DNA from: Thioalkalivibrio halophilus
GTDB lineage: Bacteria; Pseudomonadota; Gammaproteobacteria; Ectothiorhodospirales; Ectothiorhodospiraceae
Direction: 5' to 3'
DNA length: 64,000 nucleotides
Assembly (NCBI RefSeq): GCF_001995255.1
Contig: NZ_MUZR01000007.1
Location: 62,001-126,000, forward strand
Shown here: in pieces, positions 18,051-54,869 of the stretch
How the letters are laid out: each line of letters opens with the position of its first letter
Position numbering within the stretch: the first letter of the stretch is position 1
The notes under the pieces: model-generated
The model's input: only the letters and a program-made list of their open reading frames with translations
Databases searched by the model: none
Told to the model about the DNA's origin: nothing
Program-made: the position numbers and the translations under genes

Positions 18051-18183
18051 CGCACCGGCCCGATCGCCCGAGGGCCGCGGCCCCGGCGCATTCACCCAGC
18101 AACGCTGAACCGCCCATGGTCCGGCCCTCCTGTTCGGCCGACCCGTGGACCTGCCCGCCCGAGGCGGCGTACGGGAGAGAGAC

Positions 18184-18540
18184 ATGCTGGAAGGATATCT
18201 GCCCATCCTGCTGTTCATTGCAGTAGGCATCGTGATCGGTATCGTGCCGCTGGTGATCGGCATGGCCGTGGGGCCCCGCAAGGCGGATGCCGCCAAGGAT
18301 TCGCCGTATGAATGCGGCTTCGAGGCGTTCGAGGATTCGCGCCTCAAGTTCGACGTTCGGTTCTATCTGGTCGCCATCCTTTTCATCATCTTCGATCTCG
18401 AGATCGCCTTTCTGTTTCCCTGGGCCGTCTCCCTCGATGCCGTAGGCCTGTTCGGGCTTCTTGCGATGGCGCTGTTTCTGCTGATTCTGGTAGTCGGCTT
18501 TGTCTACGAATGGAAGAAGGGGGCGCTGGAATGGGAATAG
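18184..18540 (+). CDS. nuoA: NADH-quinone oxidoreductase subunit A
   Basis: Membrane subunit at the junction of the complex I arms. The 118-residue protein has three membrane segments and the conserved [34 protein letters not shown] core, including the loop that sits near the quinone site. ATG 18184 follows a purine-rich GGGAGAGAG. The final ten bases overlap nuoB. First gene of the fourteen-gene operon. Confidence 0.97.
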
Positions 18541-19007
18541 AAGGCGTTCTGGAAAAGGGCTACGTCACCACCTCGGCTGACAAGCTCATCAACTGGGCCC
18601 GCACCGGCTCCCTGTGGCCGATGACCTTCGGCCTGGCCTGCTGCGCGGTGGAGATGATGCACACGGGTGCCGCGCGCTACGACATGGACCGGTTCGGAGT
18701 GGTATTCCGTCCGAGTCCGCGTCAGTCCGACGTGATGATCGTGGCGGGTACGCTGGTCAACAAGATGGCACCGGCGCTGCGCAAGGTGTACGACCAGATG
18801 TCGGAACCGCGCTGGGTGATCTCCATGGGCTCCTGTGCCAACGGCGGCGGGTACTACCACTATTCGTATGCCGTGGTTCGGGGTTGCGACCGCATCGTGC
18901 CGGTGGACATCTACGTGCCGGGCTGTCCGCCGACGGCCGAGGCTCTGCTTTACGGCATCATCCAGCTTCAGAACAAGATCCGGCGCACGAACACGATCGC
19001 GCGCTGA
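18531..19007 (+). CDS. nuoB: NADH-quinone oxidoreductase subunit B
   Basis: Peripheral subunit carrying cluster N2, the last Fe-S centre before quinone. The 158-residue protein has the N2 ligands as the tandem Cys37-Cys38 ([11 protein letters not shown]), Cys102 ([12 protein letters not shown]) and Cys132 ([10 protein letters not shown]). The ATG at 18531 overlaps the end of nuoA by ten bases, so translation is coupled. Confidence 0.97.
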
Positions 19008-19024
19008 GCGACCCGGGGTGGCAG

Positions 19025-19750
19025 ATGGCTGAACAACAGACCTGGATTGACGTGCTGCGCGCGAAGCTGGGCGAACGCCTGGACGGAGTGCGGGTGGTCA
19101 ACGGTGAGGCGACCATTGAAGTACCGGCGGACGCCTGGCGCGAGATCGCCGAGACCCTGCGCGACGACGAGGATTTCGGATTCGAAATCCTGATCGACCT
19201 GTGCGGCGTGGACTATCTCGAGTACGGACAGACCGAATGGGCCACCGATGACGCCTCCAGTGAGGGTTTCAGTCGGGGCGTCCAGTCCGCCACCTCCGGC
19301 CGGTTCACGTTCGATGATGCGCCCGGCGAATCGTGCTGGGACGGTCCGCGCTTCGCCGTGGTGGTGCATCTGCTGTCGGTGCAGAACAATCGTCGCCTGC
19401 GCATGCGTGCCTGGCTGCCGGATGACGAATTCCCGGAGCTGGAGTCGCTGGTGGACGTCTGGGCGTCGGCCAACTGGTTCGAGCGCGAGGCCTTCGATCT
19501 GTTCGGGATCCTGTTTTCGGGGCATCCGGACCTGCGTCGCATCCTGACCGACTACGGTTTTGTCGGCCATCCGTTCCGCAAGGACTTCCCGCTGATCGGG
19601 CACGTGGAGATGCGCTACGACACCGAGCAGGCGCGCGTGGTGTACCAGCCGGTGACCATCGAGCCGCGCGTGCTGGTGCCGAAGGTGATCCGCGACGACC
19701 ATCGCTACACCGATGGCGACGCGCCGGCGGAAGGAGCCGATCATGCCTGA
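19025..19750 (+). CDS. nuoC: NADH-quinone oxidoreductase subunit C
   Basis: Hydrophilic connecting subunit of complex I (30-kDa family), 241 residues. Hallmarks are [29 protein letters not shown] and HPFRKDFPL. NuoC and NuoD are separate here, unlike the fused NuoCD of E. coli. ATG 19025 lies 17 bases after nuoB. The gene overlaps nuoD by eight bases. Confidence 0.97.
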
Positions 19751-20996
19751 GATTCGCAATTTCACCCTGAACTTCGGCCCCCAGCATCCGTCTGCACACG
19801 GCGTGCTGCGGCTGGTCCTGGAGATGGACGGCGAGGTGGTGCAGCGCGCCGATCCGCATATCGGCCTGCTGCATCGGGGGACCGAGAAACTTGCCGAGAG
19901 CAAGCCATATAACCAGTCGATCGGCTACATGGATCGTCTGGACTACGTGTCCATGATGTGCAACGAGCACGGTTACGTGCTCGCCATGGAGCGTCTGCTT
20001 GGTATCGAAGCGCCGCTGCGGGCGCAGTACATCCGGGTGATGTTCGACGAGATCACCCGAATCCTGAATCACCTGATGTGGCTGGGCGCGCACGCTCTCG
20101 ACATCGGCGCGATGACGGTGTTCCTGTACGCGTTCCGCGAGCGCGAGGACCTGATGGACTGCTACGAGGCGGTCTCCGGCGCGCGCATGCACGCCACCTA
20201 CTACCGGCCCGGAGGGGTCGCCCGCGACCTGCCCGGCACCATGCCGAAATACCAGCCATCGGCCTGGAAGTCCCAGGAAACGGTCGACGAGCTTAATGCC
20301 AATCGCCAGGGCTCGCTGCTGGACTTCATCGAGTCGTTCACCGAGCGGTTCCCGGGGTGCGTGGACGAATACGAGACCCTGCTGACCGACAACCGTATCT
20401 GGAAACAGCGGACGGTCGGTATCGGCGTGGTGGATGCCGACCGGGCGAAACAGCTCGGTTTCACCGGCCCGATGCTGCGCGGATCCGGAGTGGAATGGGA
20501 CCTGCGCAAGAAGCAGCCCTACGAGGTCTACGATCAGCTGGATTTCGACATCCCGGTCGGGGTCAATGGGGACTGCTACGACCGTTACCTGGTGCGCATG
20601 GAAGAAATGCGCCAGTCCAACCGCATCATTCGGCAGTGCGTCGACTGGCTGCGCAGGAATCCCGGCCCGGTGCTGCTGGAGGATCACAAGATCACGCCGC
20701 CGAAGCGCGAAGAGATGAAGGCGGACATGGAATCGCTGATCCATCACTTCAAGCTGTTTACCGAAGGGATGTGCCTGCCGGAGGGCGAAGCTTACGCCGG
20801 CATCGAGCATCCCAAGGGCGAGTTCGGCTGCTATCTGGTGTCGGATGGCGCCAACAAACCGTATCGCCTCAAGGTGCGCCCGCCGGGCTTTGTCCACCTT
20901 TCCGCCCTGGACGAGATGGCGCGCGGCCACATGCTGGCCGACGTCGTGGCCATTATCGGAACCCAGGATATCGTCTTCGGGGAGATTGATCGCTGA
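19743..20996 (+). CDS. nuoD: NADH-quinone oxidoreductase subunit D
   Basis: 49-kDa-type subunit forming much of the quinone cavity with NuoB. The 417-residue protein contains [13 protein letters not shown] near the N-terminus, [12 protein letters not shown], and the C-terminal KGEFG(C)YLVSDG and [15 protein letters not shown] 19743 follows GGAAGGAG; the longer frame upstream is the overlap with nuoC. Its TGA overlaps the nuoE ATG by one base. Confidence 0.97.
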
Positions 20997-21526
20997 TGGC
21001 TGCCGAACCCAAACCCGTTGCCTTTCACAAGCCGGCCGAGCACAAGGTCGACCTGAGCGACCACGAGCGCGAGGAGATCGATCACTGGCTGGCCCGCTAT
21101 CCGGAGGACCAGAAGCGCTCGGCGGTACTCGCCGCGCTGCGGGTGGTCCAGCACGAGGACGGCTACGTTTCCACCGCGAAGATGGACGCGGTTGCCGACT
21201 ACCTGGGGCTCCCGGCGATCGCCGTCTACGAAGTGGGTTCGTTCTACTCGATGTTCGAGCTCGAGCCGGTGGGCAAGCACACCATCGCGGTGTGCAACAA
21301 CATCTCCTGCAGTCTGCGCGGCTCGGCCGGGATTATCGAGCATCTGGAAAACCGGCTCGGCATCACCCTGGGCGAAACCACGCCCGACGGGAAGTTCTAC
21401 CTGAAGAAGGAAGAAGAATGCCTCGCCGCCTGTTGCGGGGCGCCGATGATGCAGGTGAACCACGTCTATTACGAGAATCTGACGCCGGAGCGCGTGGACG
21501 AGATTCTCGACGGCCTGGAGTCCTGA
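20996..21526 (+). CDS. nuoE: NADH-quinone oxidoreductase subunit E
   Basis: 24-kDa-type subunit of the NADH dehydrogenase module with the [2Fe-2S] cluster N1a. The 176-residue protein has the four ligands as Cys100-x4-Cys105 and Cys142-x3-Cys146 (CNNISC and CLAAC). The helical N-terminal domain ends in [11 protein letters not shown]. It starts in the nuoD stop and ends four bases before nuoF. Confidence 0.97.
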
Positions 21527-21530
21527 AACG

Positions 21531-22811
21531 ATGGCCAACCAGATCTGTTTCGCGACCCGCTACCTGGATGACCCGTCGTCGCTCGAGACCTATCGTAGCG
21601 TCGGCGGATACCAGGCGCTGGAAAAGGTGTTCGGCGGCAAGATGGCCGCGGAAGACGTGATCGAGGAGGTCAAGACCTCCAACCTCCGCGGCCGCGGAGG
21701 CGCGGGGTTCCCGACCGGGATGAAATGGTCGTTCATGCCGCGCAATTCCCCGGGGCAGAAATACATCGTCTGCAACTCCGACGAATCGGAGCCCGGTACC
21801 TGCAAGGATCGCGAGATCCTGATGTACAACCCGCATGCGCTGATCGAGGGGATGGCGATCGCCGGCTACGCGATCGGCGCGACGGTGGGATACAACTACA
21901 TGCGCGGCGAGTTCATGGACGAGGTCAATACACGCTTCGAGGCCGCCCTGAAGGAGGCCTACGAGGCCGGCTACCTCGGGCGTGACATCCTTGGCTCGGG
22001 CGTGGACTTCGAGCTGTATCCGACGCTGGGCGCGGGCGCCTATATCTGCGGCGAGGAAACCGCGCTGCTGGAGTCGCTCGAGGGCAAGAAGGGGCAGCCG
22101 CGCTTCAAACCGCCATTCCCGGCGAACTTCGGCGTCTACGGGAAGCCGACGACGGTCAACAACACCGAGTCGCTGGCTTCCATCCCGTCGATCATCCGCA
22201 ACGGCGGCCAGTGGTTCGCGGACCTGGGCGTGCCCAAGTCGGGGGGCGAGAAACTGTTTTCGGTTTCCGGACACGTCAACAAACCCGGCAACTTCGAAGT
22301 GCCCCTGGGCATGCCGTTTCGGGAACTGCTGGAGATGGCCGGTGGCGTGCTCGATGGCCGCCAGCTCAAGGCGGTGATCCCGGGCGGTTCGTCCGTGCCG
22401 GTGGTGCCGGGCGACACGATGCTGCAGACCAACATGGATTACGACTCCATCACGCAGGCCGGATCCATGCTCGGCTCCGGCGCGGTGATCGTGATGGACG
22501 AGACCACCGACATGGTGAAGGCGCTGCAGACGATCTCGCGCTTCTATTATTCCGAATCCTGCGGTCAGTGCACGCCGTGCCGTGAGGGCACCGGGTGGCT
22601 GTACCGCATGCTGACCCGCATCGTGGAAGGGAAGGGTCGTCCCGAGGACCTCGAACGCCTGGACGACGTTGCGAGCAAGATCGAAGGGCACACCATCTGC
22701 GCCCTTGGGGATGCCGCCGCGATGCCGGTGCGCAGTTTCGTGAAGCATTTCCGTCACGAATTCGAACACTACATCCAGCACGGCCGGAGCCCGGTGGCCA
22801 GCGCCGCCTGA
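21531..22811 (+). CDS. nuoF: NADH-quinone oxidoreductase subunit F
   Basis: 51-kDa-type subunit that binds NADH and FMN and carries the [4Fe-4S] cluster N3. The 426-residue protein has the nucleotide and flavin motifs [15 protein letters not shown] and [25 protein letters not shown], and the N3 ligands Cys344, Cys347, Cys350 ([12 protein letters not shown]) and Cys390 ([10 protein letters not shown]). It is the electron entry point of the complex. Confidence 0.98.
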
Positions 22812-22845
22812 TCGCCCCGTCGCGCACACGCAGCAGGAATCGAAC

Positions 22846-25251
22846 ATGAGTCAGGATCAGCCACAGGATCTGGTCACCGTCGAGATCGACGGGCAGACCT
22901 TGCAGGCGCCCAAGGGCACCATGCTCATCGAGGTTGCGGACGAGGCCGATATCCGGATTCCGCGCTTCTGCTATCACAAGAAACTGTCCGTGGCCGCCAA
23001 TTGCCGGATGTGCCTGGTGGAGGTCGAGCGAGCGCCCAAGCCGCTGCCGGCCTGTGCCACGCCGGTGATGGACGGCATGAAGGTGTACACGCAGTCGCCC
23101 CTCGCCATTTCCGCACAGAAGGGCACGATGGAATTCCTGCTGATCAATCACCCGCTGGATTGTCCGATCTGTGATCAGGGCGGCGAGTGTGAACTGCAGG
23201 ACGTGGCGATGGGGTATGGCGAGTCCGTTTCGCAATACACCGAAGCCAAGCGGGTCGTGCACGACAAGGATATCGGTCCGCTGATCGAAACCGAGATGAC
23301 CCGCTGCATTCACTGCACCCGCTGCGTGCGCTTTGGCGAGGAGATCGCGGGCGTGCGCGAACTGGGTGCGACCGGGCGCGGCGAAGACATGCGGATCGGG
23401 ACCTATGTCGAGAAGACCGTCGCGCACGAGCTCTCCGGGAACGTGATCGATCTGTGTCCGGTGGGCGCGCTCACCGCCAAGCCGTCGCGCTACGGCGCAC
23501 GTGCCTGGGAATACGCCCAGGCCCCCAGTATTGCCCCGCACGACGCGGTGGGTTCCAACATTGCCGCCCATACCTATGACGGGCGCGTGATGCGGATGGT
23601 CCCGCGCGACAACGAAGCGGTCAACGAGACCTGGATCTCGGACCGGGACCGTTTCTCCTACGCGGGGCTGTATGCCGAGGACCGCGTGACCACGCCGCGC
23701 ATCAGGCGCGACGGGCAGTGGCAGGACGTGGACTGGGAGACCGCCCTGCAGCATGCGGTGGAAGGCCTGCGCAAGGTGGCCCCCGAGCGGATCGGCGGGC
23801 TGTTTTCTCCGTCGCTGTCGCTGGAGGAACACTACCTCGGCCAGAAACTACTTCGCGGGCTGGGCGTGCGCGACATCGACCATCGCATGAGCCAGCAGGA
23901 TTTCCGCGACGACGACGCCGCGCCCCTGTTCCCCTGGCTGGGCAGCCCGATCGCCGAGCTGGACCGCGCCGATGCGATCCTGCTGGTCGGCACCAATCCG
24001 CGGCGCGAGCAGCCGCTGCTGGCGCATCGCCTGCGCAAGGCGGCTCTCAACCACGACGCCAGGGTTACCCTGGTGCATAACCAGCTGCTGGACCTGACCT
24101 ACCCGGTGGCGGCCCAGCTGGTCGGCAACGAGCACGACCAGGTCATGGCCCTGGCCGGGATTGCCGGGCGTATCGCGGCGGCCGGCGAGGGGCTGCCGCC
24201 CCGCCTGGAAAAGATCGTCAAGGCCGCCCAAAGCGACGATCCGGACACCCGCGAAGCGTTCGAGCGGGCCGCACGCTCGCTGCTGGACGGGGAACAGGGC
24301 CACGTGCTGCTGGGTGCGGACGCCATGGCCAGCCCGGCGTTTGCAACCCTCCGGGCCCTGGCCGGCTGGATCGCCCGCCATACCGGGGCCCGTCTCGGGT
24401 ACATGCCCGAGGGCGCGAATGCGGCCGGTGCCTGGCTGGCCGGGGTGCTGCCGCATCGCGGCGTGGCCGGTCAGGCGCTCGAGACCAGCGGACGCCCGGC
24501 GCCGGAGATGCTGAACGAAGGCCGCGACGCGTTCGTCGTTGCCGGACTCGAGCCCGGCCGCGACGGACATGATCCGGTCGCTTTCCAGCAGGCAGTGCGC
24601 GACGCGGGATTCGTGGTCGCACTGACCGCGTTTGCCGACGCCGAATTGCAGGCATCGGCCGACGTTCTGCTGCCGGTCGCGACCAGCTTCGAATCCTCCG
24701 GGACCTTCGTGAACGCCGAAGGACGCTGGCAGAGCTTCCGCGCGGCGAGCCGCGCCCCGGGCGAGGCTCGTCCGGGATGGAAGGTCTGGCGCGTGCTGGG
24801 CAACCTGTTCGCGCAGAAGGGCTTCGATTACCTCGATTCGCCCGCAGTGCGCGACGAGCTGAAGGGCCTCCTCGCGGATGTCAGCTTCGACAACACGGTC
24901 AACCTGAACCGTGTGCACGTTGAGGAACCGGAAATCGCAGACCCGGGCAAACAAGGGTTGCGGCGCGTCGCCTCGCGTTCGCTGTACGCCACCGATCCGC
25001 TCGTGCGTCGGGCCGAACCGCTGCAGCGCAGCCCCGAGGGGCAGCTGGCGAACGCGGTGCAGGTGCACCCCGACTCGGCCGGCGGGATCCCCGACGGCAG
25101 CCGGGTTCGCGTGCAGCAGGGACGGGCCGAGGCCGAACTGACGCTTGTGCTTGACGATTCCGTACCGCCGGGCCTGGCCATCACCCTCACCGGTGGTGCC
25201 GCCGCCCCGCTTGGTGCCCCGGGCGAGCCGGTCACGCTCGCACGCGCCTGA
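22846..25251 (+). CDS. nuoG: NADH-quinone oxidoreductase subunit G
   Basis: 75-kDa-type Fe-S subunit, 801 residues. The N-terminal region supplies Cys42, Cys53, Cys56 and Cys70 for [2Fe-2S] N1b, His102-Cys106-Cys109-Cys115 for N5, and Cys154, Cys157, Cys160 and Cys204 for N4. The extra cysteine set that would hold cluster N7 in E. coli-type NuoG is not evident. The remainder is a molybdopterin-oxidoreductase-like fold with no visible cofactor site. It lies 34 bases after nuoF. Confidence 0.97.
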   Translation: MSQDQPQDLVTVEIDGQTLQAPKGTMLIEVADEADIRIPRFCYHKKLSVAANCRMCLVEVERAPKPLPACATPVMDGMKVYTQSPLAISAQKGTMEFLLINHPLDCPICDQGGECELQDVAMGYGESVSQYTEAKRVVHDKDIGPLIETEMTRCIHCTRCVRFGEEIAGVRELGATGRGEDMRIGTYVEKTVAHELSGNVIDLCPVGALTAKPSRYGARAWEYAQAPSIAPHDAVGSNIAAHTYDGRVMRMVPRDNEAVNETWISDRDRFSYAGLYAEDRVTTPRIRRDGQWQDVDWETALQHAVEGLRKVAPERIGGLFSPSLSLEEHYLGQKLLRGLGVRDIDHRMSQQDFRDDDAAPLFPWLGSPIAELDRADAILLVGTNPRREQPLLAHRLRKAALNHDARVTLVHNQLLDLTYPVAAQLVGNEHDQVMALAGIAGRIAAAGEGLPPRLEKIVKAAQSDDPDTREAFERAARSLLDGEQGHVLLGADAMASPAFATLRALAGWIARHTGARLGYMPEGANAAGAWLAGVLPHRGVAGQALETSGRPAPEMLNEGRDAFVVAGLEPGRDGHDPVAFQQAVRDAGFVVALTAFADAELQASADVLLPVATSFESSGTFVNAEGRWQSFRAASRAPGEARPGWKVWRVLGNLFAQKGFDYLDSPAVRDELKGLLADVSFDNTVNLNRVHVEEPEIADPGKQGLRRVASRSLYATDPLVRRAEPLQRSPEGQLANAVQVHPDSAGGIPDGSRVRVQQGRAEAELTLVLDDSVPPGLAITLTGGAAAPLGAPGEPVTLARA

Positions 25252-25265
25252 CAAGGGACTGAACC

Positions 25266-26330
25266 ATGTTCGACTGGATTCTCAACCTGTTCCATTCGCT
25301 GCCAACGGTGATGCAGATCCTGATCGGCATCCAGCTGATCATCATCCCGTTGATGCTGGGTGTCGCCTATCTGACCTTCGCCGAGCGCAAGATCATCGGC
25401 TATATCCAGGTGCGCGTCGGGCCCAATCGCGTGGGACCGCGCGGATGGCTGCAGCCGATCGCGGACGCGCTGAAGCTCCTCATGAAGGAGGTGATCGTCC
25501 CGTCGAATGCCAACCGGTTCCTGTTCTTCAGCGCACCGGTGCTGACGATCGCACCGGCGCTGGCGGCCTGGGCCGTGATTCCGTTCTTCGAGGGCGGTGC
25601 GCTGGCGGACGTGAATGCGGGTCTTCTCTATCTCCTGGCGCTGACGTCGCTGGGCGCCTACGGGATCATCATTGCGGGATGGGCATCCAACTCGAAATAC
25701 GCCCTGATGGGCTCGCTGCGATCGGCGGCGCAGCTGGTTTCGTACGAGATCGCGATGGGCTTCGCCCTGGTGGGCGTACTGATGGCCGCGGGTTCCATGA
25801 ACGTCGGCGACATCGTCCAGGCCCAGTCGGGCAGCGTCTACCACTGGTTCCTGCTGCCGCTGCTGCCGTTGTTCTTCGTGTATTTCATTTCCGGGGTTGC
25901 CGAGACCAACCGGGCGCCTTTCGACGTGGCCGAAGGGGAATCCGAGATCGTGGCCGGCTTCCACGTGGAATACTCCGGGATGGCTTTCGCGGTGTTCTTC
26001 CTCGCCGAATACGCCAACATGATCCTGATCTCGGCGCTGACCGCGGTGCTGTTCCTCGGCGGCTGGCTGTCCCCGTTCCAGGGCATCCTGCCGGCGGCGA
26101 TGTTCGACTGGCCGGTGATCGGTACCCTGTTGGGCGACGGTCTGCACTGGTTTCTGATCAAGACCGCGCTGTTCCTGTTCATCTTCCTGTGGCTACGTGC
26201 CACCTTCCCGCGCTATCGCTATGACCAGATCATGCGGCTGGGCTGGAAGGTGCTGATCCCGGTCACCATCGTATGGCTGTTCGTGCTGGGCGTGTTCGTC
26301 GCGTTCGACGTCGGCCCGTGGTTCGCGTAA
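25266..26330 (+). CDS. nuoH: NADH-quinone oxidoreductase subunit H
   Basis: Membrane subunit forming the entry of the quinone channel and the link to the proton-pumping arm. The 354-residue, eight-helix protein has [41 protein letters not shown] and the [24 protein letters not shown] loop, all near invariant. AAGGGACTGAACC precedes ATG 25266. Confidence 0.98.
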
Positions 26331-26340
26331 GGAGTTCGCC

Positions 26341-26829
26341 ATGAAATCCGTGCGTCATTTCTTCAAGAGCTTCCTGTTCTTCGAACTGCTGCTGGGCTTG
26401 CGGCTGACCGGCCGGTACCTGTTCCGCCGCAAGTTCACCGTGCAGTACCCGGACGAGAAGACCCCGATGTCGCCGCGTTTCCGCGGGTTGCACGCGCTGC
26501 GCCGTTATCCCAACGGCGAGGAGCGCTGCATCGCCTGCAAGCTGTGCGAAGCGGTGTGCCCGGCGCTGGCGATCACGATTCATTCGGAAGAGCGCGAGGA
26601 CGGTACGCGGCGGACGTCGCGGTATGACATCGACCTGTTCAAGTGCATCTTCTGCGGGTTCTGCGAAGAGGCCTGCCCGGTGGATTCCATCGTCGAGACG
26701 CACATCTTCGAATACCACTTCGAGAATCGGGGCGAGCAGATCATGACCAAGGACAAACTCCTGGCGATCGGTGATCGCTTCGAGAAGGAGATCGCCGAGG
26801 CCCGTGCGATCGACGCCCCGTACCGGTAA
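26341..26829 (+). CDS. nuoI: NADH-quinone oxidoreductase subunit I
   Basis: Ferredoxin-like subunit with two [4Fe-4S] clusters (N6a and N6b) that pass electrons to N2. The 162-residue protein has [12 protein letters not shown] (Cys63, 66, 69, 73) and [12 protein letters not shown] (Cys102, 105, 108, 112). The N-terminal helix is amphipathic and hydrophobic, as expected for lying on the membrane. AAGGAG precedes ATG 26341. Confidence 0.98.
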
Positions 26830-26843
26830 TCAGGGACGCAACG

Positions 26844-27482
26844 ATGACCTTCGAGCTCTTTCTGTTCTATCTTTTTGGCGCCATCCTGCTGGGTGCCGCG
26901 CTGGCGATGATCAGTGTGCGCAATCCGGTGCATGCCGCGCTGTTTCTGGTGGTGTGCTTTGTCTCGGCTGCGGCGCTGTGGTTGATGGCGGAGGCCGAGT
27001 TCCTCGGACTTGTACTCGTGCTGGTCTATGTCGGCGCAGTCATGGTGCTGTTCCTGTTCGTGGTGATGATGCTGGACATCAACATCGCCCGGCTGCGGGA
27101 GGGCTTCAGTGAATACCTCCCGGTTGGCCTGGTGGTCGCTGCCGCGATGGCGACCGTGCTGGTGCTGGTGATCACGCGTTACATCACCATGGATGCACCG
27201 GAACGGGCAGGCCCCGAGTACGCCAACACCGAGGCGCTGGGGGCGGTTCTGTACACCGAATACGTGTACCCGTTCGAGATTGCCGCCGTGATCCTGCTGG
27301 TGGCGATCATCGCGGCGATCTCCCTGACCATGCGCCGGCGGCCGGACAACAAGCGGATCGACCCGGCGCGCCAGATCGAGGTCTCGCGCGAGGGGCGCGT
27401 GCGCATGGTGTCGATGAAGTCGGAGGACAAGGCGCGCCGGGCCCGCGGGGCCGAACGCGACGACGACCCGAACCAAGAGTGA
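26844..27482 (+). CDS. nuoJ: NADH-quinone oxidoreductase subunit J
   Basis: Membrane subunit with five predicted helices, 212 residues. It contains the conserved RNPVHAALFLVVCFV and EAEFLGLVLVLVYVGAVMVLFLFVVMML segments, the latter including the pi-bulge helix TM3. The last 60 or so residues are a charged cytoplasmic extension rich in Arg and Asp (KARRARGAERDDD). A 73-base gap with a GC hairpin (27485-27500) separates it from nuoK, the longest gap inside the nuoA-N block. Confidence 0.95.
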   Translation: MTFELFLFYLFGAILLGAALAMISVRNPVHAALFLVVCFVSAAALWLMAEAEFLGLVLVLVYVGAVMVLFLFVVMMLDINIARLREGFSEYLPVGLVVAAAMATVLVLVITRYITMDAPERAGPEYANTEALGAVLYTEYVYPFEIAAVILLVAIIAAISLTMRRRPDNKRIDPARQIEVSREGRVRMVSMKSEDKARRARGAERDDDPNQE

Positions 27483-27555
27483 CGCCGGCGGGAGCGCCGG
27501 TGCCGAGCCACCGCGGGGCGGATGACCGTCCCCCAACGGAATTCAGGGCCAGACA

Positions 27556-27861
27556 ATGATTACGCTAGAGCACTACCTGGTGCTGGCCGCGCTGTTGTTT
27601 TCGATCAGCGTGGCCGGGATCTTCCTGAACCGAAAGAACGTGATCGTGCTGCTGATGTGCATCGAACTGATGCTGCTGGCGGTGAACATCAACTTCATTG
27701 CGTTCTCGTTCTTCCTGCAGGATCTGGCCGGGCAGGTCTTCGTGTTCTTCATCCTCACCGTTGCCGCGGCGGAAGCCGCGATCGGGCTGGCCATCCTGGT
27801 GTTGCTGTTCCGTAATCGCGGGACGATCAACGTCCAGGATCTGGACGAAATGAAAGGATAA
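27556..27861 (+). CDS. nuoK: NADH-quinone oxidoreductase subunit K
   Basis: Three-helix membrane subunit of 101 residues homologous to MrpC. The conserved glutamates in [14 protein letters not shown] and [14 protein letters not shown] take part in proton transfer. The length is typical. It ends six bases before nuoL. Confidence 0.97.
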
Positions 27862-27867
27862 CGGGCC

Positions 27868-29874
27868 ATGGATACGATCTATCTCCTTCTTGTCCTGGCG
27901 CCGCTGGCGGGCGCGATCGTCGCCGGTCTGTTCGGGCGTCAGATCGGCCGGGTGGGCGCGCACAGCGTGACGATCGCCGGGGTGGCCATCTCCTTCCTGC
28001 TGTCCGTGGTGGTGTTCTATCAGCACGTGTTCGGCGGAGTCGGGGTGTACAACGAATCGGTGTACACCTGGATGGTTTCTGACGGGATCCGGTTCGAGGT
28101 CGGTTTCCTGGTCGACAACCTGACCGCCATGATGATGCTGGTGGTGACCTTCGTGTCGCTGATGGTGCACATCTACACCATCGGCTATATGCAGGACGAT
28201 CCCGGCTACCAGCGGTTCTTCGCGTACATTTCGCTGTTCACCTTCTCCATGCTGATGCTGGTGATGGCGAACAACTTCATGCAGCTGTTCTTCGGCTGGG
28301 AGGCCGTGGGGCTGGTCTCCTACCTGCTGATCGGCTTCTGGTACAAACGCCCCACGGCCATTTACGCCAACATGAAGGCGTTCATCGTCAACCGCGTCGG
28401 GGACTTCGGATTCCTGATCGGGATCGCCGCGCTGGTGTTCTACACCGGCAGCCTCAACTACACCGAGGTGTTCGCCGAAGGGCAGGCGATGAGCGAGGCG
28501 ACCATCACCATCTGGCCGGGCTGGACCTTCGGTCTGCTGGATCTGGCGCTGATCTTCCTGTTCATTGGTGCGATGGGTAAATCCGCCCAGGTGCCGCTGC
28601 ACGTGTGGCTGCCGGACTCCATGGAAGGCCCGACCCCGATCTCGGCGCTGATCCACGCGGCGACCATGGTGACCGCGGGCATCTTCATGGTGGCGCGCAT
28701 GTCGCCGCTGTACGAGTTCTCCGTGCCGGCTCTGTCGTTCATCCTGGTGATCGGGGCGATCACGGCCTTCTTCATGGGTCTGATCGGTCTGGTGCAGAAC
28801 GACATCAAGCGCGTGGTCGCGTATTCGACGCTGTCGCAGCTCGGATACATGACCGTCGCCCTGGGGGCCTCGGCGTATGCGGCCGGTGTGTTCCACCTGA
28901 TGACCCACGCGTTCTTCAAGGCGCTTCTGTTCCTGGCCGCCGGCTCTGTGATCATTGCGATGCACCATCTGCAGGACATGCGCGCGATGGGCGGGCTGCG
29001 CCGGCACATGCCCATCACCTACGTGACCGCGCTGATCGGGTCGCTGGCGCTGATCGGGTTCCCGTTCTTCTCCGGGTTCTTTTCCAAGGACGCGATCATC
29101 GAAGCAGTCGGGTACTCCGAGATTCCGGGGGCGACTTTTGCCTACTGGATGGTTCTGCTGGGCGTGTTCGTAACCGCGCTGTACACCTTCCGCATGTTCT
29201 TCATGGTGTTCCACGGGGAGGAACGCTACGACCAGGCACATCACTACATGCCGGATCACGGGGACGGTGAAGATCACCATCATCACGGTACCCCGCATCC
29301 GCACGAGACCCCGTGGGTGGTTACGCTGCCGCTGATCCTGCTGGCGATCCCGTCGGTGGTGGCCGGGTACTTCATCGGCCCGATGCTGTTTGGCGACTTC
29401 TTTGCCGATTCGATCTTCGTCAGCGAGGCGAAGGACGTACTGGCGCAGAAGGGCGAGAGCTACACCGGGGTGTTCGGGTTCGTGCTGCACGGGCTCGTGG
29501 CGCCGGCGTTCTGGTTCGCGATGGCCGGGCTGGCGACCGCCTGGTACCTCTACATCAAACGGCCCGATCTGCCGGCGGTGATCGCCGACCGTCTGCGGCC
29601 GGGTGTGCGCATCCTCGAGGACAAGTACGGGTTTGACCGCTTCAACGACTGGTTCTTCGCCGGTGGCACGCGGCGCCGCGCGTTCGGTGGGCTGGGTGTC
29701 GGCCCGGGTGCGCCATGTGCAGTCCGGCTTCCTCTATCACTATGCATTCGTGATGATCATCGGCCTGCTGGTCCTGATGTTCGCCTTCGTGATCTGAGGG
29801 GTTTCGACGATGACCGCTGCGAAGCCCACCGCTGTTTCAAGGAACGACCATGTTTGCTGACTGGCCCATTCTGA
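27868..29874 (+). CDS. nuoL: NADH-quinone oxidoreductase subunit L, broken near its 3' end
   Basis: Antiporter-like, proton-pumping distal subunit. Residues 1-600 match NuoL well, including FFGWEAVGLVSYLLIGFW, KSAQVPLHVWLPDSMEGPTP, the TM7/TM8 lysine region and a His-rich loop with nine histidines at 458-479. After YGFDRFNDWFFAGGTR (to about 29673) the frame changes. The expected C-terminal end (VGWVSARVRHVQSG, then FLYHYAF and a hydrophobic helix) is in the +1 frame and stops at 29797. About twenty residues normally between the two parts also seem to be missing. The open frame instead ends in a charged, non-membrane tail at 29874, overlapping nuoM. This is a small deletion with frameshift, or an assembly error; the product would lack the last transmembrane helix. 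Confidence 0.9.
   Translation: MDTIYLLLVLAPLAGAIVAGLFGRQIGRVGAHSVTIAGVAISFLLSVVVFYQHVFGGVGVYNESVYTWMVSDGIRFEVGFLVDNLTAMMMLVVTFVSLMVHIYTIGYMQDDPGYQRFFAYISLFTFSMLMLVMANNFMQLFFGWEAVGLVSYLLIGFWYKRPTAIYANMKAFIVNRVGDFGFLIGIAALVFYTGSLNYTEVFAEGQAMSEATITIWPGWTFGLLDLALIFLFIGAMGKSAQVPLHVWLPDSMEGPTPISALIHAATMVTAGIFMVARMSPLYEFSVPALSFILVIGAITAFFMGLIGLVQNDIKRVVAYSTLSQLGYMTVALGASAYAAGVFHLMTHAFFKALLFLAAGSVIIAMHHLQDMRAMGGLRRHMPITYVTALIGSLALIGFPFFSGFFSKDAIIEAVGYSEIPGATFAYWMVLLGVFVTALYTFRMFFMVFHGEERYDQAHHYMPDHGDGEDHHHHGTPHPHETPWVVTLPLILLAIPSVVAGYFIGPMLFGDFFADSIFVSEAKDVLAQKGESYTGVFGFVLHGLVAPAFWFAMAGLATAWYLYIKRPDLPAVIADRLRPGVRILEDKYGFDRFNDWFFAGGTRRRAFGGLGVGPGAPCAVRLPLSLCIRDDHRPAGPDVRLRDLRGFDDDRCEAHRCFKERPCLLTGPF
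29672..29797 (+). other. Displaced nuoL C-terminus in the +1 frame
   Basis: From GGC at 29672 this frame reads GAARSVGWVSARVRHVQSG and then a hydrophobic helix ending LMFAFVI before TGA at 29795-29797. This is the normal NuoL ending (last transmembrane helix). No heptanucleotide slippery site was seen at the junction, and no Shine-Dalgarno lies before the in-frame GTG at 29687. Confidence 0.85.
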
Positions 29875-31364
29875 GTCTGTTGATCTGGCTGCCGATCCTC
29901 GGTGGCTTCCTGACGCTTGCCGCCGGGCGCGACGCGCCGGTGGTGGCCCGGCGCCTGGGCCTCAGCGTGGCCGTGGCCACTTTCGTGGCAAGCCTGCCGC
30001 TGTGGTTCATGTTCGAGCGCGGCACCGCGGAGATGCAGTTCCAGGAGGTGGCCTCCTGGATCCCTGCGTTCAACGTGAACTATCACCTCGGGGTCGACGG
30101 CATCTCCATGCCCCTGATCCTCCTGACCACGCTGATCACGGTGGTCGTGGTCATCGCCGCATGGGAGTCGGTGAAGGATCGCATCGCCTACTACCTCGCC
30201 GCGATGCTGGTCATGGAAGGACTGATGATCGGCATGTTCGCGGCGATGGACGCGGTGCTGTTCTATGTGTTCTTCGAGGCGATGCTGATCCCCATGTTCC
30301 TTGTCATCGGGATCTGGGGCGGGCCGCGCCGCGTGTACGCAACGATCAAGTTCTTCCTCTACACCTTCCTCGGGTCGGTGTTCATGCTGGTCGCACTGAT
30401 CTGGATGTACATCCAGTCCGGCAGCTTCCTGATCCAGGACTTCCATGCCCTGCAGATCGGGATGACCGCGCAGATACTGATCTTCCTCGCGTTCTTCCTG
30501 GCGTTTGCGGTCAAGATCCCGATGTTCCCGGTGCATACCTGGCTGCCGGACGCGCACGTCGAGGCGCCGACGGGGGGGTCGGTGATCCTGGCGGCGATCA
30601 TGCTGAAGATCGGCGGCTACGGCTTCCTGCGTTTCTCGCTGCCGATCACGCCGGATGCGTCCGCGGTGCTGGACACGCTGATGATCGTGCTGTCGCTGAT
30701 CGCGGTGGTGTACATCGGGGTGGTGGCGCTGATCCAGAGCGACATGAAGAAGCTGATCGCGTACTCGTCGATCGCCCACATGGGCTTCGTGACTCTGGGC
30801 TTCTTCCTGGCGTTCTACATCTACTCGAATACCGGCGACTGGCAGGGCGCGTCGCTGGGTATCGCCGGCGGCATGGTGCAGATGATCTCGCACGGCTTCA
30901 TCTCTGCGGCGATGTTCCTCGCGGTGGGCGTGCTTTACGACCGGCTGCACAGTCGGCAGATCGCGGATTATGGCGGCGTCGTCAACACCATGCCGTGGTT
31001 CGCCGCGTTCTTTGTGCTGTTCGCGATGGCCAATACCGGTCTGCCGGGCACCTCGGGCTTCGTGGGGGAATTCATGGTGATCCTGGCTGCCTTCAAGGCT
31101 GATTTCTGGATTGCCTTCCTCGCCGCGACCACGCTGATCCTGGCGGCGGGGTACACCCTGTGGCTGGTCAAGCGCGTGATCTTTGGCACCGTGGCCAACG
31201 AGAACGTGGCCGGCCTGTCCGATATGAACCGGCGCGAATTCTTCCTGATGGGGCTGCTGGCGTTTTTCACGCTGCTGCTGGGCGTGTGGCCGGCACCGCT
31301 GCTGGAAGTGATGAACGCGACCATCGACAACCTCGTGGCGCATATCGCGCACTCGAAGCTCTGA
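29850..31364 (+). CDS. nuoM: NADH-quinone oxidoreductase subunit M
   Basis: Antiporter-like proton-pumping subunit of 504 residues with about fourteen membrane helices. Landmarks are the TM5 glutamate in [21 protein letters not shown], the lysine in [27 protein letters not shown] and [17 protein letters not shown] 29850 follows AAGGA. The start lies within the out-of-frame extension of nuoL. Confidence 0.98.
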
Positions 31365-31377
31365 ACGGACGCCTGAC

Positions 31378-32826
31378 ATGAATTTCGAGATTCCTGCCTT
31401 TCTGCCCGCCGTTCCCGAGATGTTCGTCCTCGGGATGGCGTGCTTCATCCTGATACTGGATGCGTTCCTGCCGGATTCGCGCCGCGACATCACCTACGGC
31501 CTGGTGCAGGCGACGCTCGCGGGAGCCGCGGTGCTGACGCTGTGGCTGGCCGGTCCGGAAGTGGTGCTGACCTTCAGCGACAGCTTCATCAAGGACCCGA
31601 TGAGCGACGTGCTGAAGCTGGCGGTGTACGTCACGAGCTTCTTCGTCTTCCTCTACTCGCGGCCGTATCTGATGGCGCGCGACATCCACAAGGGGGAGTT
31701 CTACATCCTCGGGCTGTTCGCGGTCCTGGGGATGATGATCATGATCTCGGGGCACAATCTGCTGACCCTGTACCTGGGCCTGGAACTGCTGTCGTTGTCC
31801 TCGTATGCGCTGGTGGCGTTCTGGCGCGACAACACCCGGGCCAGCGAAGCCGCGATGAAGTACTTCGTGCTGGGGGCGCTGGCGTCCGGACTGCTGCTGT
31901 ACGGCATGTCCATGATCTACGGCATGACCGGCTCGCTGGATATCGCGGTGATCGCCTCCGAACTGACGACGGCCGACGAGGCCCTGAACGTCCCGCTGGT
32001 GTTCGGTCTGGTGTTCCTGGTGGTGGCGATCGCGTTCAAGCTGGGGGCGGTGCCGTTCCACATGTGGGTGCCCGACGTCTATGACGGGGCGCCGACGGCG
32101 GTGACGCTGTTCATCGCGACCGCGCCGAAGATCGCGGCCTTCGCGTTCCTGATGCGGCTGCTGGTCGAGGGCATGGGACCGATGCATGCCGACTGGCAGG
32201 GCATGCTCATCATCCTGACCGTGCTGTCGCTGGCGGTGGGCAACGTGATTGCGATCGCGCAGACCAGCATCAAGCGCATGTTCGCGTATTCGACCATCGC
32301 GCATGTCGGGTTCCTGTTCATGGGGATCCTCGCGGGGACCGATTCGGGCTACGCCTCGGCGATGTTCTACGTGATCGTGTATGCCCTCACTGCGGCCGGC
32401 GGGTTCGGCATGATCGTGTTCCTGTCGCGCCGGGGTTACGAGGCCGATCGCCTGGACGACTTCGCCGGGCTGGCGAAACGCAACCCGTGGTTCGCCTTCA
32501 TCATGCTCCTGCTGCTGTTCTCCATGGCCGGGGTCCCGCCGACCGTCGGTTTCTACGCCAAGCTGGCCGTGATTCAGGCGGCCGTGGGTGCGGGCCTGGT
32601 CTGGCTGGGTGTGGTCGCGGTGATCTTCAGCATCATCGGTGCGTTCTACTACCTGCGGGTGGTGAAGATCATGTTCTTCGACGAGCCGAAGGAGGAGGCC
32701 AGCGAGCCGGTGCAGCCTTCGGGTGCGCTGGCCACGGCGCTGAGCATCAATGGCCTGGCAGTGCTGTTGCTGGGAATTTTTCCGGGCCTTCTGCTGTCCG
32801 TTACCCACTACGCCATTGCTGGCTGA
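31378..32826 (+). CDS. nuoN: NADH-quinone oxidoreductase subunit N
   Basis: Third antiporter-like membrane subunit, 482 residues and about fourteen helices. Landmarks are [40 protein letters not shown] and [15 protein letters not shown]. It ends 18 bases before the DUF2818 gene and completes the NuoA-N set. Confidence 0.98.
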
Positions 32827-49182: not shown

Positions 49183-50099
49183 ACAGTGACCATCGGGCAC
49201 GTATCCTCGTGGTGGATGACGAGCCTGCCAACATCGAGTTGCTGGCCGGGATCTTCGAGGACGAACACGAGGTGCTGTTCGCCACGAACGGGAAACGCGC
49301 GCTGGATCTTGCCGCCTCGGCGCGTCCGGACGTGATCCTGCTCGACGTGATGATGCCGGGAACGGACGGTTTTCAGGTCTGTGAATGGCTGAAGTCCGAG
49401 CGCGCGACGGCGAACGTCCCGGTGATCTTCATTACCGGGGTGGGAGATACCGAGGGCGAGGCCCGGGGTCTGGAACTGGGCGCGGTCGACTACGTGAACA
49501 AGCCCATCAATCCGCCGGTGGTCCGGTTGCGGGTGCAGCATCAGATCGAGCTCAAGCGCGCCCGCGATCAACTGACCCGCATGGCGGTGACCGACGGACT
49601 GACCGGCCTGGCCAACCGGCGCCAGTTCGAGGAGACCCTGGAGCGTGAAAATGCGCGTCTGGCGCGGACCGGGGACGCCCTTTCGGTGATCCTGATGGAC
49701 ATCGATTATTTCAAGCCCTTCAACGACACCCTGGGCCATGTCCGCGGGGATGACTGTCTGCGCGAAGTGTCGCGGGTGCTGGACGAGACCATCTCGCGTC
49801 CCGCCGACCTGGCCGCACGTTACGGGGGGGAGGAGTTCGGCTGCATCCTGCCGGAAACCGCGCTGGAGGATGCCGCGGCAGTGGCCGAGCGGGTGCGGGA
49901 GGCGATCGTCGAACTCGGTGTCCCCCATCCGGCGTCCGAAGTGGCGGATCACGTGACCGCCAGCCTTGGCGTGGCCACGCTGCATTGCCAGCCGCGCCAG
50001 TCCGCCCTGCGGGTGGTGGCGCGGGCCGATGAGCAGCTCTACCGCGCCAAGGCGGAGGGACGGAACCGGGTCTGTGCTGCCGGCTCCGCGGAGCGCTGA
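49179..50099 (+). CDS. Response regulator with diguanylate cyclase output (REC-GGDEF)
   Basis: A 306-residue PleD/WspR-type regulator. The N-terminal receiver has acidic residues DDE near 13-15, Asp56 as phosphorylation site (LLDVMMPG) and Lys108 in NKPI. The GGDEF domain has the active GGEEF at 216-220, and an RxxD inhibitory site (Arg207-Pro-Ala-Asp210) at the canonical distance of five residues upstream, so product inhibition by c-di-GMP is expected. It is translationally coupled to the upstream hybrid kinase and is 15 bases before the flavin-kinase gene. Confidence 0.94.
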
Positions 50100-50114
50100 G
50101 CAACGCAGCGCAAA

Positions 50115-53100
50115 GTGGGGGCTTCCAGAAAGACCGTACTGATTGCCGGAGCCGGCCCTGTCGGGCTGGAAGCGGCCCTGTATGCCACGCGCCTGGGCTA
50201 TCGTGTGCTGCTGGCCGAGCGTTCCCGCGCGGTCGCTCCCGCGTTGCGCGACTGGGCCGGGATACGGATGTTCACCTCCTGGCAACAGTGCACCTCGCCG
50301 CTGGGGCGTGACGCGTTGCGCGGGCAGGGACACGCTCTTCCCGATCCGGATGCTTTCCCGACCGCCGGCGAGTTTCGTCGCGAGTACTGCGAGCGGCTCG
50401 CCGGGGTGCTGGCACACCGGGATTGCGACCTTCTGCTCGAGACGCGAGTGCTGGCGGCAAGTCGCGACGGCATGCGGGCGAATACCGGCATTGGCGATCC
50501 GGAACGCGCCCGTCACCCGTTCCGCGTGCTGGTGGACGAGCAGGGACGTGAGCGCCAGCTGGAGGCCGATCTGCTGATCGACACCACCGGCGTGGCGGGA
50601 CACCCACAGTGGCTGGGGCCCGGCGGGTTGCCGGCCTCGGGGGAGCGCGAGCTGGGCGGACGCATCCTGTACGGACCCCGGGCGCCGGAGGGCGAGGAGG
50701 GTCAAGCCCTGCCGCCCGCCGAATGCATCCTGGTGGCCGGCGGCGGAGCCGAGGCCGCGCTGGCGGTCGAATACTGGCTGGATCCGCCGACGGGCTCGCC
50801 GCCCGTGGAGCTTCTGTGGGCCTTCGAGGAACCGGTCCCCCTGCCGCCCGACTGGCCGCAGCGGGATCCGTTTCCCGAGCGCGGGGCTCGGTTCGCGCGG
50901 GTCCTGGAGGCGACCGCCGGTGACCGTGGCGCACGGCGGCTGCCGCAGACGCAGGTGGTACGGCTGGAGCACGGCCCGGGCGTGCGTGGCGGGCTGGATG
51001 TGGAGCTCCGCGGACCTGACGGGACCCGGCGCATGAGCGTGGACCGGGTGCACGCGCTGACCGGCCATGTCCCGGACAACGCCTGGCTGGAAACGCTGCA
51101 GTTCCACGCCTGTTATGCCACCGGCGCGCCCATGGGGCTGGCTGCGGCCATGCTCGCGACCGTCGAGGATTCGCACGAGCTGTGGCACAGCCTCGGGGTG
51201 TCCACCGTGGGCAATCCCGAGCCGGGGCTTTTCGTGCTCGGGCGCAAGAGTTACGGACGCAGCCCCGGGTTCGTGCTGCCGGTCGGTCTGGGCCAGATCG
51301 TCGAGACCTTTCAGTCCATCACCGGGGACACGAGCCTGGATCTCTATGGCGACACCGTCCCGCGCCAGGGCAACCGTCCCGGCGGGGCCGCCATTGAGTC
51401 CGCGCAGCCGGTGACCTGCGATCTCCCGCCCGCAGCCACCGACACCGCCGGACCGGCCGGGCGTGATGCCGTGATCCCGGGCGACGGAGGAGAGGATGCC
51501 GCGGCCGACTATCATTTCCGGGTGATCGCCGAGAATCTCAAGGAGGTGGTGTTCCAGACGGATCTCGAGCATCGCATCACCTATCTGAGTCCGTCGTGGA
51601 GCGAAGTTACGGGCCTGGCGCGGGAGCCGTTCATCGGGCACAGCTGGATGGATCTGCTGCACCCGGAGGATCAGGGGTACGGTCGCAACCAGTGCGACGC
51701 CTTCGTGGGTGACCGGCTGGCCGAGTACAACGAGGAGTTGCGCGTGCGGACCAGCGAGGGTGCGGTGCGCTGGATGGACGTCACCGCGCGGGTGCTGCGG
51801 GATCGACAGGGTCGGGCGCGCGGGACGGTGGGCTCCATGCTGGATGTGACCCGCCGGCGCGAAAGCGAGGCCGAGCTGCGCGAGAGTCAGGAGCGCTTTC
51901 GCCTGATCAGCGATCTGGCGACTGACTGGATCTACTGGCTGACTCCCGAGTTCGAGTTCCGCTACTGCTCGCCTTCCTGTCAGGCGGTGACCGGCTACGG
52001 CGATGCCGAGTTCTACCGGAACCCCGACCTGTTGCGCGAGATCGTGCACGTGGAGGATCGCGAGGGGTTCGATCAGCATTTGTACGAGATCCACGAGAAG
52101 CATGTGGACGGCGCGTTTGATTTCCGCATCGTCACGCGCGCGGGCGAGGAGCGCTGGCTGCGCCATCACTGCACCCCGGTGTATGCGGAAAGCGGGCTGT
52201 ACATGGGGCAGCGGGCGGCCAACTACGACATCACCGATCGTATCCGGGCCGAGGAGGCTCTGACCCGGGCCCGTGACGAGGCCGAGTCCGCCACCCGGGC
52301 CAAGAGCGAATTTCTCGCCAACATGAGTCACGAGATCCGTACGCCGATGAACGCGATCATCGGCATGACGCACCTGGCTCGGCGCACTGAGCTGACTCCA
52401 AAGCAGCGTGGCTATCTGGACCGTATTGACAGTGCTTCCCAGGCTCTGCTGGGACTGATCAACGACATCCTGGATTTCTCCAAGATTGAGGCCGGAAAGC
52501 TGGAGCTGGAGGAAAGCCCGTTCGCGCTGGAAGACGTGCTGCGCAACGTCTGGGACATCGTCGGTCTGAAGGCCGAGGACAAGGGGCTGGAGCTCGTGCA
52601 CCGGGTGGATCCCGCTCTTCCGCACCACCTGACGGGGGACGCCCTGCGGCTCGGACAGATCCTCACCAACCTGGTTGGCAACGCGGTGAAATTTACCGAG
52701 GAAGGCGAGGTGGTGGTGGGCGCGACCTGCGAACGCATGGAAGAGGACGAAGCCGTGCTGCGTTTCGAAGTGCGCGATACTGGCCCCGGCATGAGCCGGG
52801 AGGAGACCCGGCGGCTGTTCCAGTCCTTCACCCAGCTCGACGGCTCCGTGACCCGCCAGCAGGAGGGCACGGGCCTGGGTCTGGCGATCTCCAGGCAGCT
52901 GGTGGAGATGATGGGGGGCGAAATCGGTGTCGAGAGCGAGCCGGGACGGGGCAGTACCTTCCATTTCAGTGTGCGCCTGGGGCTGAATACGGCCGCCGGG
53001 GATCCGCACGAGACCCTGGGTGAACGGCTTACCGGCGCGGAGCTGGCCGGCCGCCGCGCGCTGGTGGTGGATGACAACGCCAGCGCGCGCGAGACGCTGG

Positions 53101-54563: not shown

Positions 54564-54578
54564 CCCGGGTCCGGCGGT

Positions 54579-54869
54579 TCAGACGCGGGTGAACAGCGGG
54601 AGTTCGTGGCGCCGGGCGTTGGCAGCCAGAAAGCGGCCGCGCCCGGGTTGTTCGGCTTCCAGCGTCTCCAGATACCGTGACGCCTCGCCCGCCACCGTCG
54701 CCAGGAACACCTCCAGTTCGCGCGGGTCCACCCGCGGCGCGCCGAAGGCACCGCCGCTTTCCGTCGGGTGCCAGAACAGCCGCGGCTGCCAGTTGCAGCC
54801 CCGGATGCGCGGGTCCTCGAACAGGGCCTGCACGCGTTGCAGCAGTTGCGGATCGTGGGTGACGCTCAT
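54579..54869 (-). CDS. Small protein of unknown function coupled to ispG
   Basis: A 96-residue soluble protein I do not recognise. It contains [20 protein letters not shown] near the middle, then a helical, acidic part ([24 protein letters not shown]). No signal peptide, membrane segment or cysteine cluster is present, apart from a single Cys. Its ATG overlaps the ispG TGA (ATGA at 54866-54869), so it is translated with ispG; this coupling and codon use like its neighbours support a real gene. It converges on the flavin-kinase gene with a 15-base gap. Confidence 0.7.

What the first reader, a model, noticed from the sequence alone, without database searches (positions are those of the whole stretch)
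29640..29874. nuoL has lost its conserved C-terminus by deletion plus frameshift
After DRFNDWFFAGGTR the frame breaks; the conserved NuoL ending, including the last transmembrane helix, lies in the +1 frame to 29797, and about twenty intermediate residues appear to be absent. The deletion is not a homopolymer error of one base. The result would be a complex I whose distal subunit lacks the helix that anchors its lateral helix, in an otherwise intact operon.
Basis: partly seen in the sequence, partly recalled or inferred. Interest (0 to 1): 0.6.

Follow-up and report, generated by a model that had tools for sequence, protein, structure and literature searches.

The report
Broken nuoL end in one genome
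One soda-lake bacterium's draft genome lacks 65 bases near the end of a respiratory gene, which would spoil the end of the protein; since the relatives examined do not share it, it is most likely a sequence error or a recent harmful mutation.

Summary
Against the nearest relative held (G012, same genus), nuoL lacks exactly 65 bases between 29675 and 29676. The rest of the gene lies in the +1 frame to its normal stop at 29797, while the nuoL frame runs on through unrelated residues to 29874. All 109 relative loci examined (95 distinct 3' ends) keep an in-frame hydrophobic C-terminus. Of 30 genus genomes searched, only the window's own matches the joint over its whole length. Over 140 kb, nuoL is the only compared gene model whose conserved end continues in another frame. 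The other 13 nuo genes are open and recognised.

A near-identical E. coli mutant, K551fs, has about 37% of the complex and little quinone reductase activity (PMC3274701).

Reads are not available, so artefact and mutation cannot be separated. I favour a draft-assembly error (0.55) over a recent loss-of-function deletion (0.40). Nothing found supports an adapted, working truncated complex I.

The parts
18145..32826 (+). nuoA to nuoN operon; the 13 genes other than nuoL are open
   Evidence: ORFs; NCBIfam matches (12 of 13 above a curated cut-off of at least one model of that subunit; nuoA matched at 2.9e-36 but below its cut-off)
27868..29874 (+). nuoL open frame as it stands, 668 aa: 602 normal residues, then an unrelated tail
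   Evidence: NuoL profiles match residues 3/4-599 only
29675..29676 (+). joint: 65 bases present in the relative G012 are absent between these two bases
29676..29797 (+). normal 3' end of nuoL, now in the +1 frame, with the normal stop
29676..29874 (+). out-of-frame tail of the nuoL frame; no likely membrane helix (best 19-residue hydropathy 1.34, against 2.55 for the tail of G012); runs 25 bases into nuoM
29669..29680 (.). 12-base perfect palindrome across the joint; meaning unknown, may be chance
29850..31364 (+). nuoM, start overlapped by the extended nuoL frame

Best explanation
In this one draft assembly the nuoL gene of a Thioalkalivibrio strain lacks 65 bases that its relatives have. 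I think it most likely that the organism has these bases and a normal NuoL, and that they were lost when the draft was assembled. Shown: the 65-base absence, the frame shift, its absence from the other genomes examined, and an otherwise open operon. Inferred: that the loss happened in the assembly and not in the cell. The inference rests on how damaging the change should be to a bacterium of a genus that needs reverse electron transport, not on any direct sign of mis-assembly.
For: The genome is a draft of 97 contigs. The joint is in 1 of 30 genus genomes searched, its own. The 13 other nuo genes are open and recognised, and nuoL before the joint differs from G012 at 121 codons silently and 14 non-silently out of 602: the gene was under strong constraint. 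The lost frame after the joint is nearly unchanged (3 of 10 changed codons non-silent, Fisher p 0.096), so any real deletion would be very recent. The matching E. coli truncation K551fs is severely damaging, and Thioalkalivibrio sp. K90mix is described as obligately chemolithoautotrophic and needing reverse electron transport for NADH (PMC3368412, listing and passages).
Against: No direct sign of mis-assembly was found: the window has no N, and over 140 kb no other compared gene model continues its conserved end in another frame, so the assembly looks good here. The joint is clean, and its two ends share a short imperfect match of a kind seen at real deletions (sequence). Steimle et al., as reported in PMC3274701, found similar truncations to keep 80-85% activity, which would make a real mutation tolerable.
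Confidence: 0.55

Rival explanations
1. A real, recent 65-base deletion in the sequenced culture or strain. It shifts the frame in the middle of the lateral helix, removes the second half of that helix and the last transmembrane helix, and leaves little or no working complex I (loss of function).
For: Clean joint in an otherwise good stretch of assembly. Short imperfect match at the two ends (the relative has CGGC before each end, with a mismatch at the next base), as expected of slippage or short-homology end joining. The mutant type is viable in E. coli.
Against: Expected to be costly in an obligate chemolithoautotroph. No second NuoL was found: of 8 antiporter-like matches in the genome, 3 are nuoL, nuoM and nuoN, 4 score best as Mrp-type antiporter subunits A or D, and 1 matched no family at E 1e-30. 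NqrA was not found. No decay is seen elsewhere in the operon.
Confidence: 0.4
2. A working complex I that has adapted to a NuoL without its distal lateral helix and anchor, perhaps pumping fewer protons per electron.
For: The frame stays open into nuoM and the operon is otherwise open. Steimle et al., as reported in PMC3274701, found about half pumping with most activity kept.
Against: Not seen in any relative examined. Nothing points to compensation or to age. Belevich et al. found a fragile complex with negligible quinone reductase activity.
Confidence: 0.03
3. Programmed frameshifting joins the normal C-terminal frame to the rest of NuoL.
For: The downstream frame is conserved.
Against: Even with a shift about 22 conserved residues, including the IDG..NG stretch, would be missing, and no relative examined has the arrangement.
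Confidence: 0.01

Closest known systems
NuoL, NADH-quinone oxidoreductase subunit L (TIGR01974, NF005141)
   Same: Residues 1-603 are 97.7% identical to the nearest relative held; scores 747.8 and 756.3 bits, above the curated cut-offs of 407.5 and 556.
   Different: The profile match stops at residue 599 (positions 567 of 630 and 547 of 615), while the nearest relative matches to the end.
E. coli NuoL variant K551fs (Belevich et al. 2011, PMC3274701, passages read)
   Same: A frameshift in the middle of the lateral helix, with loss of the second half of the helix and of the 16th transmembrane helix.
   Different: Made in the laboratory by a one-base loss, ending after nine foreign residues. 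Here 65 bases are missing and 65 or 66 foreign residues follow.
E. coli NuoL variants Y544St and W592St (Steimle et al. 2011, known to me only through PMC3274701)
   Same: C-terminal truncations of the same part of NuoL.
   Different: Clean stops; reported to keep 80-85% quinone reductase activity and 50% pumping, in conflict with Belevich et al..

Membership tests
NuoL (TIGR01974 / NF005141) | Whole-protein score above the curated cut-off | tested here: met
   747.8 against 407.5 bits; 756.3 against 556 bits
NuoL (TIGR01974 / NF005141) | Complete C-terminus: whole lateral helix and last transmembrane helix | tested here: not met
   Match ends at residue 599; break at E. coli 554-556; tail without a likely membrane helix
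NuoL (TIGR01974 / NF005141) | Place in a nuo operon between nuoK and nuoM | tested here: met
   nuoK 27556-27861, nuoL, nuoM 29850-31364
Assembly artefact | Reads that disagree with the joint | not testable with these tools
   No reads and no second assembly of the strain are held
Assembly artefact | Other broken gene ends nearby, as in a poor assembly | tested here: not met
   100 of 110 G012 gene models matched at 70% or more, 90 of these 100 in one piece; of the 10 others only nuoL continues its conserved end in another frame
Loss-of-function mutation in the strain | Loss confined to one or few strains, relatives intact | tested here: met
   an artefact would look the same
Loss-of-function mutation in the strain | Relaxed selection on the lost frame | tested here: inconclusive
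   3 of 10 changed codons non-silent after the joint, 14 of 135 before; Fisher p 0.096

The most novel reading that the evidence does not exclude
A naturally occurring, working complex I whose NuoL lacks the distal lateral helix and its anchor, with a lower proton-to-electron ratio that eases reverse electron transport in a soda-lake sulfur oxidiser.
Probability: 0.03. Interest if true: 0.6.

Novelty: not a real feature. Interest (0 to 1): 0.1.

Why it matters
If the deletion were real and the complex worked, it would be a natural test of the role of the NuoL lateral helix, on which two E. coli studies disagree (PMC3274701). As it stands it is chiefly a caution: nuoL of this record should not be used as evidence about complex I until reads confirm it.

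Tried and rejected
Local structure explaining the joint: the window stretch and the intact relative fold no better than shuffled sequence (z 1.15 and 1.46); rejected.

A long direct repeat at the two ends: none found. The longest shared words near the ends in G012 are 7 bases, at spacings 67 and 71, not 65. At spacing 65 the best 24-base stretch near the joint has 11 matches, reached by 1.7% of stretches in nuoL; weak.

Decay of the lost frame as a clock: 3 of 10 changed codons after the joint are non-silent, against 14 of 135 before it; Fisher p is 0.096, and 61 of 563 upstream stretches of 39 codons have as many non-silent changes. Inconclusive.

The missing segment elsewhere in the genome: apart from the two halves of nuoL, only 15 scattered short matches of about 16-29 bases. 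A dropped piece of 65 bases need not survive as a contig, so this does not decide between the readings.

Mistakes mended: a blastn step failed on its gap parameters and was replaced by direct alignment. The comparison after the joint was off by one base and was redone. A first check of relatives left out 16 loci lying on the other strand; all 109 are. Only 2 of the 5 non-nuo antiporter-like proteins were first classed; the other 3 were scanned later.

Papers: PMC3274701, PMC3368412 and PMC8795404 were seen as search listings and found passages only (13, 28; 34, 38). Other papers were seen as listings only. Steimle et al. is known to me only through PMC3274701. Seven library searches were made; no claim is made that a natural NuoL truncation is absent from print.

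Not done: no structure prediction; no search for type II NADH dehydrogenase; no identification of the strain.

Full report
What is there. The window carries a nuoA-nuoN operon at 18145-32826. The 13 genes other than nuoL are open and matched by NCBIfam models of the expected subunits, 12 of 13 above a curated cut-off; nuoA is matched at 2.9e-36 but below its cut-off. nuoL begins at 27868 and its frame is open to 29874, giving 668 residues. The two NuoL profiles match residues 3/4-599 only, while for the nearest relative they match to the end.

The break. Aligned with L009 (genome G012; 97.7% identical over residues 1-603; 91.6% identical DNA over 4412 aligned bases of the neighbourhood), nuoL has one gap of exactly 65 bases at 29675/29676. 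The bases after it are the normal 3' end, in the +1 frame, with the normal stop at 29797.

Is it shared? 109 of 109 loci aligned have an in-frame stop and a hydrophobic end, with 61-72 residues after the point of the break; they are 95 distinct 3' ends, 14 pairs being fetched by two tools. 9 of the 109 fail only a strict IDG..NG pattern. Of the 24 other genus genomes, 20 gave a nuoL locus used here (L009-L028); the other four (G007, G018, G019, G023; 66-80% complete) gave no orthologous nuoL locus among those fetched. In one search the 81 bases across the joint matched over their whole length in 1 of 30 genus genomes, the window's own; 16 of the other 29 had partial matches only and 13 had none at the threshold, so that search alone says little about the 13.

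Is the assembly poor here? Over 140 kb of the contig (the window and both sides), 110 mechanical gene models were made on G012; 100 had a match of 70% identity or more in G000, and 90 of these matched in one piece over at least 93% of their length. Of the ten others, nuoL is the only one whose conserved end continues in another frame. From the alignments and sequences, six of the other nine look like over-extended starts, two lie at ends of the compared stretch, and one (148 residues) differs in a low-complexity end; this sorting is my reading. In the other direction 104 of 107 models matched, 96 in one piece, 8 otherwise, nuoL among them. Two of those 8, outside the window (C7:476-910 and C7:136817-137902), match in two frames near their starts; they were not followed up.

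What would the protein lack? Aligned with E. coli K-12 NuoL (fetched; the position numbering is supported by D542 and P552 falling on the letters named in PMC3274701), the break falls at E. coli 554-556. [quoted passage not shown] So the second half of the lateral helix goes as well as the last transmembrane helix. The foreign tail has no likely membrane helix (best 19-residue hydropathy 1.34, against 2.55 in G012). E. coli K551fs is almost the same truncation: 37% of wild-type HAR activity (a measure of the amount of complex), 14% quinone reductase, very slow growth on malate. Y590St, lacking only the last helix, gave 42% and 7% (passages). The same paper reports that Steimle et al. found 80-85% activity and 50% pumping for similar variants, so the effect is probably severe but disputed.

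Could the strain do without it? Of 8 antiporter-like matches in the genome, 3 are nuoL, nuoM and nuoN; 4 score best as Mrp-type antiporter subunits A or D (three of these four below the curated cut-off, and two were scanned as partial stretches); 1 matched no family at E 1e-30. No second NuoL was seen, although some genus genomes have a second NuoL-like protein of about 50% identity. NqrA gave no match; RnfC did. K90mix, of the same genus, is described as obligately chemolithoautotrophic and as needing reverse electron transport for NADH; it has nuoA-N and Rnf (PMC3368412). Whether Rnf could stand in is not known from these calls. Type II NADH dehydrogenases were not searched for.

Artefact or mutation? 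Nothing in the sequence decides it. For a mutation: a clean single joint, a good local assembly, no N in the window, and a short imperfect match between the two ends. For an artefact: one genome only, a draft of 97 contigs, an expected severe cost, and no decay of the lost frame or of the other nuo genes. A 12-base perfect palindrome crosses the joint. The window has 50 such palindromes, so one across a given joint would be expected about once in a hundred (density), but it was noticed after the fact. I give 0.55 to artefact, 0.40 to a recent loss-of-function mutation, 0.03 to an adapted working enzyme and 0.01 to recoding.

Novelty. Either way the kind is ordinary: a draft error, or a frame-shifting deletion of a type already made and studied in E. 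coli. I file it as not a real feature because that is the likelier reading, with the reservation that reads would settle it at once.

Noticed in passing
window 29669-29680: A 12-base perfect palindrome lies exactly across the 65-base joint; unexplained and possibly chance (50 such palindromes in the window).
   Followed up: partly
window 50083-54579: About 4.5 kb with no collinear match in G012, holding a 1482-residue PAS / histidine kinase / receiver / Hpt protein (50115-54563). Its best match in the compared part of G012 is 57% to a stretch that aligns elsewhere with window 46.9-49.2 kb, so it may be a duplicated and diverged neighbour.
   Followed up: partly
window 29254-29310: NuoL carries a histidine- and acid-rich loop (DHGDGEDHHHHGTPHPHET); loops of varying length and composition occur at the same place in several relatives and are absent from E. 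coli.
   Followed up: no
G009, G011, G014, G015, G016, G017 and others: Some Thioalkalivibrio genomes hold a second NuoL-like protein of about 628 residues, about 50% identical; no such match was listed for the window's genome.
   Followed up: no
G000:C7:136817-137902 and C7:476-910 (outside the window): Two gene models match G012 in two frames near their starts; start-site effects or further frame differences, not resolved.
   Followed up: no
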